A stretch of DNA of 40,966 nt from an uncultured cyanobacterium. Lineage in GTDB: Bacteria; Cyanobacteriota; Vampirovibrionia; Gastranaerophilales; Gastranaerophilaceae. Shown in pieces: positions 1,271 to 38,034 of the stretch. The position numbers and the translations under genes are program-made. Every line of letters starts with the position of its first letter. Within the stretch, counting starts at the first letter, position 1. The notes under the pieces are model-generated. The model saw only the letters and a list, made by a program, of their open reading frames with translations. It ran no database searches and was not told the DNA's origin. The DNA is taken from positions 1-40,966 of the forward strand of contig CALYTW010000005.1 of the NCBI GenBank assembly GCA_945487905.1, read 5' to 3'.

Positions 1271-1666
1271 CTATAATAACCTGATATCTAAATCTCTGGA
1301 ATATTCTTTTGCGTTAATTCTCGAATCCATCAATCTCATAAGTGAGTGTTCTCTGTGGTATAGGCGAGTAACGGAAACTGTAGGAAAAAGCCCGAGAGCA
1401 TTTTTACATTTATCCCAAAATGTAGGTTTTTCAGGCATTGCACTAATTACTAATTTATATAGTTTTTCATTGCGATGATGGTGCTTATCAAAAATAGATG
1501 CTCTTTTAGATTTCATACGAGCTATCAAATCATATCCGCCGGCGGATAATTTTGAAACTTCTGCATTTTGAGCAAACTGGGTTGCTAGTTTTGGTGTCCA
1601 GTTGCCTTTAGCAATAATACATCCTTTAAAATTTGTTGTTGTTTCGTTTATAGGTAAAATGTTCAC
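1271..1666 (-). CDS. hypothetical protein with N-terminal MNILPINETTTNFKG motif
   Basis: 131 aa ORF; preceding AAGGAG-like Shine-Dalgarno (ctccttc on + strand just upstream of the start); motif shared with other proteins in this window. Confidence 0.7.
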   Translation of the reverse strand: MNILPINETTTNFKGCIIAKGNWTPKLATQFAQNAEVSKLSAGGYDLIARMKSKRASIFDKHHHRNEKLYKLVISAMPEKPTFWDKCKNALGLFPTVSVTRLYHREHSLMRLMDSRINAKEYSRDLDIRLL

Positions 1667-2052
1667 AATAATACTCCTTCAAAATCGTGTTAATAATGAT
1701 ATCTAAGACTTGCGATTTTGTAAATACCTCTATTTGGTAATTGAATCTGCGGAAAAGTCACAAAAGTATTCAAAATCAATAATATTAAGAAAAATTAGTG
1801 TTAATACATCTTAATATTTCTCTTAAAATTTTTGTTTTTTACGTAATTTACTTCAAAATCTACCTTAATTTATCCGAATTAGGCACAAATGTCCCTTGTT
1901 CGCATTAAAAAAACCAGCCTGTAAAAGTTATAGGCAATGATTAAACTCTCAAACTTTGCAGCAAGGTTGGGGTCATTCTACCCCAACAAAAAATTTTATT
2001 GAAAAATCAAGTTGTGTGCAATTTTTTGCACTGGAAACAGAACAGTAGTGTG

Positions 2053-2446: not shown

Positions 2447-2674
2447 TTACATTTTTTTGTACTTATGATGCAGATATTCTACGACTCCTATATGTAAAAG
2501 TGTAAGCACACCTGTAACAACCCCCAGAATTTTATGAGTTTTAACAACAGGTTTGGAAGAAGTAAAGGCACGTGCTGTCAAAAGCAGCATAGAAGCAGCT
2601 GCTGCATAACCTGTATTTTTAGGAGTCAAAAAAGTGTTTGGTTTTGTATTATTTATTGGTTGCACAGATGTCAT
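2447..2674 (-). CDS. small membrane protein (MTSVQPINNTKPNTF...), two predicted hydrophobic segments
   Basis: 75 aa from internal Met at 2674 (ORF track starts at 2701); AAAASMLLLTARAF and ILGVVTGVLTLLHIGVV hydrophobic stretches. Confidence 0.5.
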   Translation of the reverse strand: MTSVQPINNTKPNTFLTPKNTGYAAAASMLLLTARAFTSSKPVVKTHKILGVVTGVLTLLHIGVVEYLHHKYKKM

Positions 2675-9594: not shown

Positions 9595-10719
9595 CTATCT
9601 GCGGTAGGAAATATATCTGTTTTTTCCTTTTTGAGAACTTGTCAGTTTACTGTTATTATTAGCTTTTTTGGGTTTTACATCATTAATTTTCAGGTTAATA
9701 CTTCCTTCGGTTTCTTTCTGCACATTTGCTCTAAACTCTTTCGGGTACCAACTTCTAGTAGCAAAAAGAGATTTTCCGCCATTAATATTATCACAGATGT
9801 CGTCTATGTATTTTTGAAGGTTATTTGAAATATCAAACTCAGGATTTAACAGAGCATATTGTTTTAAGGGCATATCAGACCTGTCATTGTTTATAAGTTT
9901 TATTACCGGTGCAAGATTTCCGAGGCTGTCATTTCCCCCTCTTGCAGTTGGAATAAGATGTTCAATCGTCATTTCTGACATGCTCAAAAGCCTCTGTGCG
10001 ATTACATTATGCGGTAAGTAAGAATATTTGACTACAAAAGCATCAAAATCCACAAACGAACGGGGAAGTTGATACCACAAACTGTATAATTCATTTAATT
10101 TTGCAGCATTTTCTTCATTTGTTTCTATACTAGCAAGCTGACCCAAAACATCTCTCCTGCTGAACGAACCGTCGTAAATTCTTACTATTGCACTATCTCT
10201 AATTTGATCTACGTAGTTTTTTGAATGTCCATTCAGACTGTTGATTATTCTGTCGGATTCCTCGCTGTCTAAAATGTGATTCTGTTTGCGTCTCAGGTTG
10301 TTAATGGAATCATCTCTTTTGTCATACAAAATATCCTGAAGTGTTTGTTTTCCGCATCCGGTATTTTGTTTAAAAAAATCAAAAACTTGAGTTTCAACTT
10401 TCTGCATATAATTTTCGTAATTATTCAGAAAGTTTACAACTGCCTGAGCATTGGATTTCTTTGCGAGTTTGGCATAAATCCCTCTTAAATCATAGGATAA
10501 CAGCATAGGTCTTCGTGTATATGCACATAATCTTTTTTGATAATGAGCCATTATAAAACTTGCATCAGGCGTAGCTTTAAAGATTGGCATATAGCAAGCG
10601 GAAGTTAACCCGCTGATATTTGTATCTGAACTCATGCCCGATTGTTGTTGTGCATTAACTCTTTCGTTTGTTTTCCCAACATGATTTATCCCAAGTACAG
10701 GATTTAGTGAAATCTTCAT
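9595..10719 (-). CDS. hypothetical protein with HNH nuclease-like motif and N-terminal MKISLNPV…PIFKA motif
   Basis: 374 aa; TIEHLIPTARGGNDSLGNLAPVIKLINNDRSDMPL matches the HNH pattern (H-P-GG-D/N-NL-N-R); upstream CAYTRRPML could be a displaced first element. Confidence 0.65.
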   Translation of the reverse strand: MKISLNPVLGINHVGKTNERVNAQQQSGMSSDTNISGLTSACYMPIFKATPDASFIMAHYQKRLCAYTRRPMLLSYDLRGIYAKLAKKSNAQAVVNFLNNYENYMQKVETQVFDFFKQNTGCGKQTLQDILYDKRDDSINNLRRKQNHILDSEESDRIINSLNGHSKNYVDQIRDSAIVRIYDGSFSRRDVLGQLASIETNEENAAKLNELYSLWYQLPRSFVDFDAFVVKYSYLPHNVIAQRLLSMSEMTIEHLIPTARGGNDSLGNLAPVIKLINNDRSDMPLKQYALLNPEFDISNNLQKYIDDICDNINGGKSLFATRSWYPKEFRANVQKETEGSINLKINDVKPKKANNNSKLTSSQKGKNRYISYRR

Positions 10720-14112: not shown

Positions 14113-14832
14113 ATGGTTGAAAATAAATATAATCGTGTGTTATTAAAAATCAGCGGAGAAGCTTTGCTCGGCGATCAGCAGTTTGGCATTGATCCAAAAC
14201 CCGTTGAGATGATTGCGGAAGAAATTCGTTCAATTTATGAAAGAGGGGTTGAGATTGCAGTCGTTGTCGGAGGCGGAAATATCTTTAGAGGTATGAAAAA
14301 TAGTGCCAGACTCGGAATGGATCAAGCATCCGGAGATTATGTCGGCATGCTCGCAACAGTTATGAATGCTGTTTGTTTACAATGCGCTTTGAAAAAAATT
14401 GAAGTTGAATGCAGAGTTCAAACAGCTATTGCAATGAATCAGATTGCTGAACCTTATGTCCGTCACAGAGCAATCAGACATCTTGAAAAGGGTCGTGTGG
14501 TTATATTTGCTGCAGGAACAGGAAATCCGTTCTTTACTACAGACACAGCTTCGGCACTTCGTGCTTCGGAAATAGGCGCAGATGTTATGCTTATGGCTAA
14601 AAACGGTGTTGACGGGGTTTACAGTGATGACCCGAGAACAAATGCGGATGCTAAAAAGTTTGAAACAATTTCTTTTGCGGAAATTATACAAAAAGATTTG
14701 AAAGTTATGGATACATCGGCGTGTGCTTTGTGCAAACAAAACGATATTCCTATTATTGTATTTGATTTTAAAGCGGAAGGAAGTCTTGTTGATATTATGA
14801 ACGGTAAATCCGTCGGAACGTACATAAGTTAG
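14113..14832 (+). CDS. pyrH: UMP kinase
   Basis: [51 protein letters not shown]. Confidence 0.98.
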
Positions 14833-14854
14833 TTTTATTATAAAGGAGAATGTT

Positions 14855-15421
14855 ATGTCAGAAGCTCTTGAAGAAATGTATTTATTAGGTGAAGAAAAAA
14901 TGGAAAAGGCAATTTCTCAGATGAAAAGGGAATTTTCATCGGTAAGAACCGGAAGGGCTAATCCGGGAATATTAGATAAAGTTGTTGTTGAATATTACGG
15001 AGCGCCAACACCTATCAGACAAATGGCGCAAGTAAGTGTTTCGGAAGGTACAACTCTCGTTATTACTCCGTTTGATAAAAGCATTATTAAAGAGCTTGAA
15101 AAAGCAATAATTAAAGCAGAAATCGGAGTTACACCAAACAATGACGGAACTTGTGTAAGATTGAACTTCCCTCCTTTAACCGAAGAAAGAAGGAGAGAAA
15201 CCGCAAAAGAAGTTAAGAAATTCGGCGAGGATGCAAAAGTTGCAATAAGAAATGCCCGCAGAGATATGGTTGATGATTTAAAGAAAATTGAAAAAGACGA
15301 AAATCTGCCTGAAGATATGGTTAAAGATAATCAGGATAAAATTCAAAAAATGACAGACAAATATGTAGGCATGATTGATTTAATGGTTAGCGAAAAAGAA
15401 AAAGAGGTTATGACCGTATAA
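14855..15421 (+). CDS. frr: ribosome recycling factor
   Basis: FSSVRTGRANPGILDKVVVEYYGAPTPIRQMA, downstream of pyrH. Confidence 0.98.
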   Translation: MSEALEEMYLLGEEKMEKAISQMKREFSSVRTGRANPGILDKVVVEYYGAPTPIRQMAQVSVSEGTTLVITPFDKSIIKELEKAIIKAEIGVTPNNDGTCVRLNFPPLTEERRRETAKEVKKFGEDAKVAIRNARRDMVDDLKKIEKDENLPEDMVKDNQDKIQKMTDKYVGMIDLMVSEKEKEVMTV

Positions 15422-16254
15422 TGGATTGCAGAAGGCTAATTACAGGAATAGTAATCGGGTTCACAGCATTTTTTGCAATGCTTGCCGGAGGAGTATGGCT
15501 TTCTCTGCTTGTTTTGGGCGCATCTTTTTATCTGGCAAAAGAATATACGGAAATCTTACAGCACAAAGGTTTTCTGCCAAGTTTTAAAATTATTGTTATA
15601 TCGAATATTTTATTTGCATTAGCTATGTTTTTTTACAGGCTGGAATTTATACCGTTAATAATTACGGTATCTGCTGTTATGGCTTTATTAACAGTATTAT
15701 TTAAAGGTAAACAGCCTTATATTGCCAATGTTGCAACAACAGTATTCGGATTTATATACTGCGGTTGGTTTCCGCTTTATCTTATACTGCTCAGACACAT
15801 GGGGGATACCTCGCCAAGCAGTTTTATCCCTTATCCAGAAGGGGCAAATTATTGTCTGGTAATTCTTTTTTCGGTGTTGTTAACAGATACTTTTTGTTAC
15901 TTTGCAGGCATGAAGTTTGGTAAACATAAACTTGCACCTGTAATAAGTCCTAATAAAACGATTGAAGGTTCCATAGGCGGTTCACTTTTTGGGATAACAG
16001 CTGCGGTAATTATCGGAATTATGCTGTGTATTCCATGGTATCACGCAATTGCCCTCGGTATTATAACTTCAATTTTTGCTCAGCTCGGGGATTTGTGTGA
16101 ATCTATGATTAAAAGAGATGCGGGAGTTAAAGATTCCAGTAATATTCTTCCCGGTCACGGCGGATTTTTAGACAGGCTCGACAGTTATATTTTAACGATA
16201 CCGGTTGTTTATTATTATGCACTTTACATCATAAATTTTAAGGGTTGGTTTTAA
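15421..16254 (+). CDS. cdsA: phosphatidate cytidylyltransferase
   Basis: SPNKTIEGSIGGSL… and DLCESMIKRDAGVKDSSNILPGHGGFLDRLDS signature; overlaps frr by TAATG. Confidence 0.96.
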   Translation: MDCRRLITGIVIGFTAFFAMLAGGVWLSLLVLGASFYLAKEYTEILQHKGFLPSFKIIVISNILFALAMFFYRLEFIPLIITVSAVMALLTVLFKGKQPYIANVATTVFGFIYCGWFPLYLILLRHMGDTSPSSFIPYPEGANYCLVILFSVLLTDTFCYFAGMKFGKHKLAPVISPNKTIEGSIGGSLFGITAAVIIGIMLCIPWYHAIALGIITSIFAQLGDLCESMIKRDAGVKDSSNILPGHGGFLDRLDSYILTIPVVYYYALYIINFKGWF

Positions 16255-28989: not shown

Positions 28990-29319
28990 TTAAAATGATG
29001 CCGTTGAAGCACTTGCAGCTTCTTCATAAGGGTTTTCCATACCTGATTTTAGAGCTTCCGCATATGCTGCTTCAAAAAGTTTGTCCGAGTTTTCAGCTAT
29101 TTGCGGATTTTCAATAATAGCTTTCAAATCGTTGTTAACATCATCCGTTCCTTTGAAAAGCATTGAACGTCCGATTGTTTCAGCCTTATGGTTTGAAAAA
29201 TCTTTTAATTGGGGGGTTTCTTCCGCAGTCGAATCCTGTTCAGGTTCAAAGCTTTGTTTTCGGATGCTGTTAAAGTTCGTTTGATTTACACTAATTTTAG
29301 GACCATTAATTTCACTCAT
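28990..29319 (-). CDS. hypothetical protein, 109 aa, low complexity
   Basis: ORF with clear spacing; contains MLFKGTDD segment; no family recognised. Confidence 0.6.
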   Translation of the reverse strand: MSEINGPKISVNQTNFNSIRKQSFEPEQDSTAEETPQLKDFSNHKAETIGRSMLFKGTDDVNNDLKAIIENPQIAENSDKLFEAAYAEALKSGMENPYEEAASASTASF

Positions 29320-37428: not shown

Positions 37429-38034
37429 ATGCAAATTAATCCAATTAGCTATAGCTGTAGTAACTCAAATAAAATTAAGTCAAAAAATGTATCAGAGGTT
37501 AATTTTCTTGGTGCAAAACAAAAACTCATTTCTGTGAATACTGACTCTTTTAGAACTAAAGAAGCAAAAATAATATATGATAAAATACAAGGATATCTAA
37601 AGTTGCTTAAAGAAGGAAGCATTAAAAACGTTAAAATATTGCATGAAAATATAAATGGCAAAGAATGTTATGTTTTAAGAGAATCTGATATTTTATTATC
37701 AATAAATAGAAGTTCAGATAATTTTAAATTAAGGCTTTCTAAAAAATATAATGACCATTCCGAAAGCGCTTTATTAGAAGCTAATTTTGATAAAAACGGG
37801 CAAATGTTTTCGGGCTATGATTTTGAAAGACAACTGCATTTTGAACGTACTAATTCTAATCTAAGAAGAATGTCATCTATGGGAAATACATATTTGCCAG
37901 TTGGGCAAAATGATAAAGAGTGGCAATCTAATGGTCGTACTATAAACACTATTCCTCTAATTGATTGTGTTAGTGACGGCGTGTATGAAATATTTATTGA
38001 ATTAGCAAGGTTGCATACATCAATTTTAAAATAA
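37429..38034 (+). CDS. hypothetical protein with N-terminal MQINPIS…VNFLGAKQ motif
   Basis: ORF of 201 aa from ATG 37429 preceded by GGAAGGG; coding-like composition. Confidence 0.65.
   Translation: MQINPISYSCSNSNKIKSKNVSEVNFLGAKQKLISVNTDSFRTKEAKIIYDKIQGYLKLLKEGSIKNVKILHENINGKECYVLRESDILLSINRSSDNFKLRLSKKYNDHSESALLEANFDKNGQMFSGYDFERQLHFERTNSNLRRMSSMGNTYLPVGQNDKEWQSNGRTINTIPLIDCVSDGVYEIFIELARLHTSILK

What the first reader, a model, noticed from the sequence alone, without database searches (positions are those of the whole stretch)
1271..1666. Recurring short N-terminal motif on unrelated hypothetical proteins
Three small proteins begin with M-x(1-3)-[IV]-x-P-I-[NS]: MNILPINE (this locus), MTSVQPINN (2447-2674) and MQINPIS (37429-38034). 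A fourth begins MKISLNPV (9595-10719). In three of them this is followed, 5-45 residues later, by F-[KL]-[GA] (TTNFKGC, EVNFLGA, MPIFKAT); the protein at 28990-29319 also has MLFKGTDD. The rest of these proteins show no obvious similarity. A shared N-terminal tag on diverse passengers suggests a sorting, secretion or processing signal not among the standard Sec/Tat/lipoprotein types. The motif is short and could be partly coincidence.
Basis: partly seen in the sequence, partly recalled or inferred. Interest (0 to 1): 0.62.

Follow-up and report, generated by a model that had tools for sequence, protein, structure and literature searches.

The report
Undescribed N-terminal tag in gut bacteria
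About 3% of the genes sampled from a whole order of common gut bacteria (Gastranaerophilales) encode proteins that start with the same short two-part tag, although the proteins behind it are unrelated; the tag looks like an address label, possibly for export, but where it sends them is not known.

Summary
The window lies in a Gastranaerophilales-type MAG (G000, 1.66 Mb). I gene-called about 2 Mb sampled from 17 genomes plus 1.26 Mb around a family found independently. Proteins there start more often than chance with a two-part tag: box 1, a small hydrophobic head (M-x(1-4)-[IV], often ..P-I-[NS]); an Asn/Gln/Ser/Pro-rich, acid-poor linker of variable length; box 2, [PVIT]-[SN]-F-[KRN]-[GA]. 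It occurs at 2.7% of gene starts against 0.31% of internal Met (p=5e-22), and 4.1% against 0.20% in the second set; no enrichment was seen in other orders of the class. The 61 curated tagged proteins form 45 passenger clusters (amylase, M16 peptidase, 5'-nucleotidase, HNH, PTPase, AAA, ankyrin, unknowns). One family keeps F-x-[GS] in 80 of 80 orthologues while the linker varies. Function is inferred: most likely an uncleaved type-III-like export signal (about 0.38). Secretion could not be tested, and a related family with a type III gate lacks the tag.

The parts
1271..1666 (-). Tagged gene, 131 aa; small alpha/beta domain behind a disordered N-terminus; patchy (6 of 117 genomes of the family have a match)
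   Evidence: GTG start with AAGGAG; orthologues L204-L207; invariant F13, G15, H63, Y70, H104, R116; AlphaFold pLDDT <50 for residues 1-13, about 81 mean
1646..1666 (-). Box 1 (head) MNILPIN
   Evidence: sequence; head enriched at gene starts
1622..1633 (-). Box 2 (core) NFKG
   Evidence: F and G invariant in 5 orthologues with different linkers
1674..1679 (-). Shine-Dalgarno AAGGAG supporting the GTG start
   Evidence: upstream sequence
37429..38034 (+). Tagged gene, 201 aa, beta-rich domain; patchy (5 of 57 genomes, counting G000 itself)
   Evidence: relatives L022-L025; N-terminal residues 1-37 predicted disordered
37429..37449 (+). Box 1 (head) MQINPIS
   Evidence: MQ invariant and I/V kept in 5 relatives
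37498..37515 (+). Box 2 (core) VNFLGA
   Evidence: VSFEGG, VSFEGG, ISFRAG, VTFGNA in relatives
9595..10719 (-). HNH nuclease-like protein, 374 aa, divergent tagged member
   Evidence: Pfam HNH_4 2.3e-5, above its cut-off; relatives L044, L276, L260, L242 with related cores
10573..10587 (-). Divergent box 2 PIFKA at residues 45-49 of the HNH protein
   Evidence: sequence; relatives have NFKG / PSFGS / PQFQA / VQFRR
2447..2674 (-). 75-aa membrane-like protein with the head only (MTSVQPINN), no canonical box 2; borderline
   Evidence: one relative, 66% identical over 75 aa in L263, where the F is not kept
28990..29319 (-).
   Evidence: conserved over full length in 63/65 genomes of the genus

Best explanation
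The tag is one functional N-terminal signal carried by a large, changing set of accessory proteins of Gastranaerophilales. SHOWN: two short conserved boxes around a disordered, Asn/Gln/Ser/Pro/Thr-rich, acid-, Ala- and Leu-poor linker of variable length; enrichment at gene starts; unrelated passengers; conservation among orthologues. INFERRED: it is an uncleaved export signal of the type III kind, read in an unfolded state by one of the flagellum-type export gates these bacteria have. The divergent second set (FliE-FliF-FliH-FlhA, with rod-like genes in some families) is the likeliest reader, because one genome, G046, seems to keep it after losing the flagellar set. In this reading the small hydrophobic head and the F-x-G/A core are the recognition points, and the passengers (amylase, M16 peptidase, nucleotidase, PTPase, HNH, ankyrin, membrane proteins) act outside the cell.
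For: Start-specific enrichment: 53/1936 vs 30/9723 internal Met, p=4.9e-22; independently fetched flanks 35/848 vs 10/4909, p=3e-21. 61 proteins in 45 passenger clusters, with varied Pfam domains. F-x-[GS] kept in 80 of 80 orthologues, P at -2 in 77, with linkers of varying length and sequence. Composition against the rest of the same proteins: N 2.4x, Q 1.8x, P 1.7x, S 1.5x, T 1.35x; D 0.23x, E 0.35x, A 0.37x, L 0.63x. This matches published type III effector N-termini: Ser/Thr/Pro enriched, Leu and acidic residues depleted, coil-rich (PMC2669295). Disordered N-termini in both AlphaFold models. Type III gates are present: a flagellar-class FlhA in 50 of 54 order genomes, a divergent-class FlhA in 50, at least two FliF-family matches in 50; G046 has only the divergent FliF/FlhA and no flagellin. 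One FliK, an established type III substrate, starts MSVLSESNILDLSFKAF. Two tagged window families are patchy, as effectors often are.
Against: No secretion data. Family f9 in the same class has a full-length FlhA in most members searched but no tag enrichment, so a type III gate alone does not imply the tag. The flagellar gate recognition motif FxxxPhi is not met: hydrophobic at +4 in 37% against 29% of internal controls, p=0.17. Many cores lie at residue 10-13, closer to the head than the 19-24-residue spacing reported for FlgD (PMC8983047). AAA, CheR-like and acyltransferase passengers are normally cytoplasmic or inner-membrane. The FliK match is a single case; the other FliK-like protein found lacks a clear core. 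Proximity of tagged genes to type III genes was not shown.
Confidence: 0.38

Rival explanations
1. Intracellular sorting or docking motif: the tag is a disordered linear motif that binds one conserved intracellular receptor (membrane patch, scaffold, chaperone or AAA+ machine) and gathers diverse enzymes there; nothing is exported.
For: AAA, CheR-like, acyltransferase, amylase and HNH passengers fit a cytoplasmic role; short core in disorder, as in typical linear motifs; f9 has a type III gate but no tag.
Against: Patchy accessory families and PTPase, ankyrin, M16 and nucleotidase passengers fit export at least as well; no receptor identified.
Confidence: 0.28
2. Export signal of a different, non-Sec route (a type I, IV or unknown exporter) particular to this order.
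For: The tag was found only in this order although type III gates are found more widely in the class.
Against: No candidate exporter was tied to the tag; type IV and type I signals are usually C-terminal (general knowledge); the composition resembles type III signals.
Confidence: 0.17
3. Processing or stability signal: the tag is a site for N-terminal modification, protease recognition or controlled degradation.
For: N-terminal, disordered, conserved core.
Against: No cleavage-type residue pattern was apparent; the core abuts very different domains.
Confidence: 0.08
4. No common signal: shared ancestry of the passengers, or start-region composition bias (A-rich codons, Asn/Lys/Ile-rich ends) plus chance F-x-G.
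For: A minority of tagged proteins are paralogous (largest cluster 4; adjacent tagged pairs 8 vs 1.6 expected); starts of the ATG AAN ATH type are common in AT-rich genomes.
Against: Shuffling the same N-termini gives mean 7.5 against 53 observed; 45 clusters; F and G invariant in a divergent family and F-x-[GS] in 80 of 80 of another.
Confidence: 0.06

Closest known systems
Type III secretion effector N-terminal signals (injectisome and flagellar export)
   Same: N-terminal, disordered, Ser/Thr/Pro/Asn-rich, acid- and Leu-poor, on unrelated passengers without another signal peptide; type III gates present in the genomes
   Different: Classical effector signals have no fixed consensus; here a conserved [SN]F[KRN][GA] core and an I/V head recur across dozens of families; secretion not shown
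Early flagellar subunit signals: N-terminal hydrophobic residues plus gate recognition motif FxxxPhi (PMC8983047)
   Same: Two elements, small hydrophobic residues at the extreme N-terminus and a Phe-centred motif downstream, with an unstructured spacer
   Different: +4 hydrophobic not enriched (p=0.17), core is F-x-G/A, spacing often under 15 residues, passengers are mostly enzymes and unknowns rather than rod/hook proteins
Sec/Tat/lipoprotein signal peptides
   Same: N-terminal address on varied passengers
   Different: No basic n-region followed by a hydrophobic core, no twin arginine, no lipobox in the tags shown

Membership tests
Sec / Tat / lipoprotein signal peptide | hydrophobic h-region of about 10 or more residues after a basic n-region, or RR motif, or lipobox | tested here: not met
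   Read directly in the window and ortholog N-termini; note that the curated set was chosen to exclude hydrophobic N-termini
Type III secreted protein | N-terminal signal composition (Ser/Thr/Pro enriched, Leu and acidic depleted, coil) | tested here: met
   composition; disorder; criteria from PMC2669295
Type III secreted protein | organism encodes a type III export apparatus | tested here: met
Type III secreted protein | secretion depends on that apparatus | not testable with these tools
   needs experiment
Type III secreted protein | tag absent where the apparatus is absent, present where it is present | tested here: inconclusive
Early flagellar (rod/hook) export substrate | gate recognition motif FxxxPhi | tested here: not met
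   hydrophobic +4 37% vs 29%, p=0.17
Early flagellar (rod/hook) export substrate | hydrophobic signal about 19-24 residues before the GRM | tested here: not met
   core F often at residue 10-13 in the curated set; spacing requirement from PMC8983047
Single homologous protein family | passengers homologous over their length | tested here: not met
   45 BLAST clusters among 61 tagged proteins; remote homology among some small ones not excluded

The most novel reading that the evidence does not exclude
An entire order of animal-gut bacteria delivers some tens of proteins per genome (about 3% of genes) out of the cell through a second, flagellum-derived type III apparatus, using a conserved two-part N-terminal address that has not been described, and shuffles that address onto new passengers.
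Probability: 0.27. Interest if true: 0.85.

Novelty: new variant of a known kind. Interest (0 to 1): 0.6.

Why it matters
It gives a first handle on a sizeable set of mostly unannotated accessory proteins in uncultured, widespread gut bacteria. If it is an export signal, it would define their secretome and predict host- or microbe-facing proteins from sequence alone. It would also give a rare case of a type III signal with a readable consensus, making the open question of what a type III gate recognises testable by point changes in F, G and the head.

Tried and rejected
(1) FxxxPhi gate recognition motif: first seemed to fit the five 1271-1666 orthologues (F-x-G-x-[IVL]) but is not enriched overall. 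(2) DNA-pattern counts over 386 genomes of the phylum: not specific, since small AT-rich cyanobacterial genomes show similar counts. CCNATHWSNTTYNNNGS gave no consistent excess over its control; other fixed DNA patterns did not separate tag-bearing from other lineages well enough. (3) Unsupervised EM motif search drifted to Walker-A and Cys motifs. (4) Gapped-word enrichment was dominated by signal peptides and membrane helices. (5) A genome-contig scan with the HNH protein found no relative. (6) Fold searches: 1271-1666 has only a weak match to ribosome-hibernation factor pY (5mmj_y, E=0.033, TM 0.44-0.48); 37429-38034 none. (8) No paper describing the tag was found; the library lacks most subscription journals. 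(9) Searches failed through my own input errors and carry no result.

Full report
WHAT THE WINDOW IS. The window is bases 1-40966 of contig C5 of a 1.66 Mb, 115-contig assembly. Its relatives belong to one order. Close relatives of a family from these genomes in named records are labelled Candidatus Gastranaerophilales or Melainabacteria, with some records mislabelled. I treat it as a Gastranaerophilales genome; that name rests on these record titles.

CHECK OF THE OBSERVATION. The quoted N-termini are exactly as stated. The GTG start of 1271-1666 has a good ribosome-binding site. I wrote a simple codon-usage gene finder and ran it on about 2 Mb sampled from the own genome and 16 others. [IV].P[IV][SNT] is about ten times denser in residues 1-10 than elsewhere, and [IVP][SN]F.G is several-fold denser in residues 1-40. 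A two-part rule (I/V in residues 2-7, low-acid non-hydrophobic linker, core [PVITLQ][SNAT]F[KRNGQST][GAS]) is met by 53 of 1936 starts (2.7%) against 30 of 9723 internal Met (0.31%); shuffled N-termini give a mean of 7.5. The rule was shaped on these data. In flanks fetched independently around another family it is met by 35 of 848 starts against 10 of 4909 internal Met; a large share of those 35 belong to one adjacent paralogous family, so the families are fewer than the genes. Outside the order, 2 of 304 genes meet it, both unconvincing by eye (order against outside p=0.027).

1271-1666 and 37429-38034 are clear members. 9595-10719 (HNH domain above cut-off) is divergent (PIFKA), but relatives carry NFKG, PSFGS, PQFQA or VQFRR at the corresponding place. 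2447-2674 keeps the head only. 28990-29319 is a different thing: a small protein conserved end to end in 63 of 65 genomes of the genus.

ANATOMY. Curated by rule and by eye, 61 tagged proteins fall into 45 passenger clusters. Curation by eye is a weakness; the statistics above do not depend on it. Position 2 is mostly N/K, position 3 I/V, position 6 I or N, position 7 N/S. Around F: V/P/T/I at -2, S/N at -1, K (then R/G/N/Q) at +1, G (35) or A (22) at +2. The linker is rich in N, Q, P, S, T and poor in D, E, A, L. Pfam passengers include alpha-amylase (two), M16 peptidase, calcineurin-like/5'-nucleotidase, DSP-PTPase, HNH, AAA, ankyrin, CheR-like, PlsC-like acyltransferase and FliK; many have no family.

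CONSERVATION. In the 1271-1666 family (5 sequences, 23-42% identity to the window protein) the six invariant columns are F13, G15, H63, Y70, H104 and R116. In the 37429 family the core reads NFLGA, SFEGG, SFEGG, SFRAG, TFGNA. In a membrane-protein family found in many species, 80 of 80 orthologues have F-[KNRSEQTG]-[GS] with P at -2 in 77, behind a conserved MI.[KR][IV] head and a linker that varies in length and sequence. Both AlphaFold models put the tag in a region of pLDDT below 50 (for 1271-1666 up to and including F13). A conserved core in a disordered, otherwise drifting tail is the mark of a linear recognition signal.

MACHINERY. The order has two classes of FlhA, about 865 bits and about 720 bits, each found in 50 of 54 genomes searched, with 46 or so having both; the gaps are mostly in incomplete assemblies (counts read by hand from its list, and my notebook entry saying that every genome has both was too strong). 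At least two FliF-family matches occur in 50 of 54. The divergent set includes FliE, FliF, FliH and FlhA and, in several families, rod-like proteins in the same cluster (names partly by eye). Flagellins occur in 53 of 54 and rod/hook C-terminal domains in 54. G046 has the divergent FliF/FlhA but no flagellin, although it is 87% complete. Family f9 has one FlhA per genome in most members searched; G056 and the cyanobacteria tested have none. A third, about 490-aa protein matching only the FlhA C-terminal half is present in most of the order and was not seen in f9.

HOW IT MOST LIKELY WORKS. Shown: a common N-terminal signal, two boxes, variable disordered spacer, unrelated passengers, order-level distribution in this sample. 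Inferred: export by a type-III-like route. For it: composition like published effector N-termini (PMC2669295), gates present, patchy effector-like families, one tagged FliK. Against it: f9 has a gate and no tag, the FxxxPhi test failed, spacing differs from FlgD (PMC8983047), several passengers are usually intracellular. I therefore give type-III-like export 0.38, an intracellular docking tag 0.28 and another export route 0.17.

NOVELTY. I found no description of this tag in the searched literature, which lacks most subscription papers. It works like a protein address signal, a known kind, but with a consensus and a carrier set I could not match to a known one.

Noticed in passing
G000:C54, C81, C67, C11, C45; L007, L136, L138, L140-L155: Most Gastranaerophilales genomes carry two flagellum-type export sets (two FlhA classes, two FliF; two FliPQR-like sets read in G000/G009); the second is divergent and, in several families, clustered with rod-like genes. 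G046 appears to keep only the divergent one.
   Followed up: partly
L142:3872-5338, L139:6016-7482, L144:8225-9691, L147:7539-9020, L153:3585-5072: A third FlhA-related protein of about 490 aa that matches only the C-terminal half of FlhA behind a different N-terminal domain; found across the order, not seen in f9.
   Followed up: partly
L004:12794-14434 and 14501-16198; L214-L221, L271-L292: Tandem pair of tagged membrane-type proteins of about 550 aa, widespread in the order; the two G000 members have no Pfam family.
   Followed up: partly
window 28990-29319: Small acidic protein of unknown function conserved in 63 of 65 genomes of the genus.
   Followed up: partly
window 1271-1666: Predicted fold weakly resembles ribosome hibernation factor pY (5mmj_y, Foldseek E=0.033, probability 0.95, TM 0.44-0.48).
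   Followed up: partly
54 relatives: Many flagellin-like genes: up to 13 Flagellin_N matches per genome.
   Followed up: no
L213, L229, L232, L285: Public records of this lineage are titled Acinetobacter sp. or Clostridiaceae although they carry close relatives of Gastranaerophilales genes; probable mislabelling.
   Followed up: no
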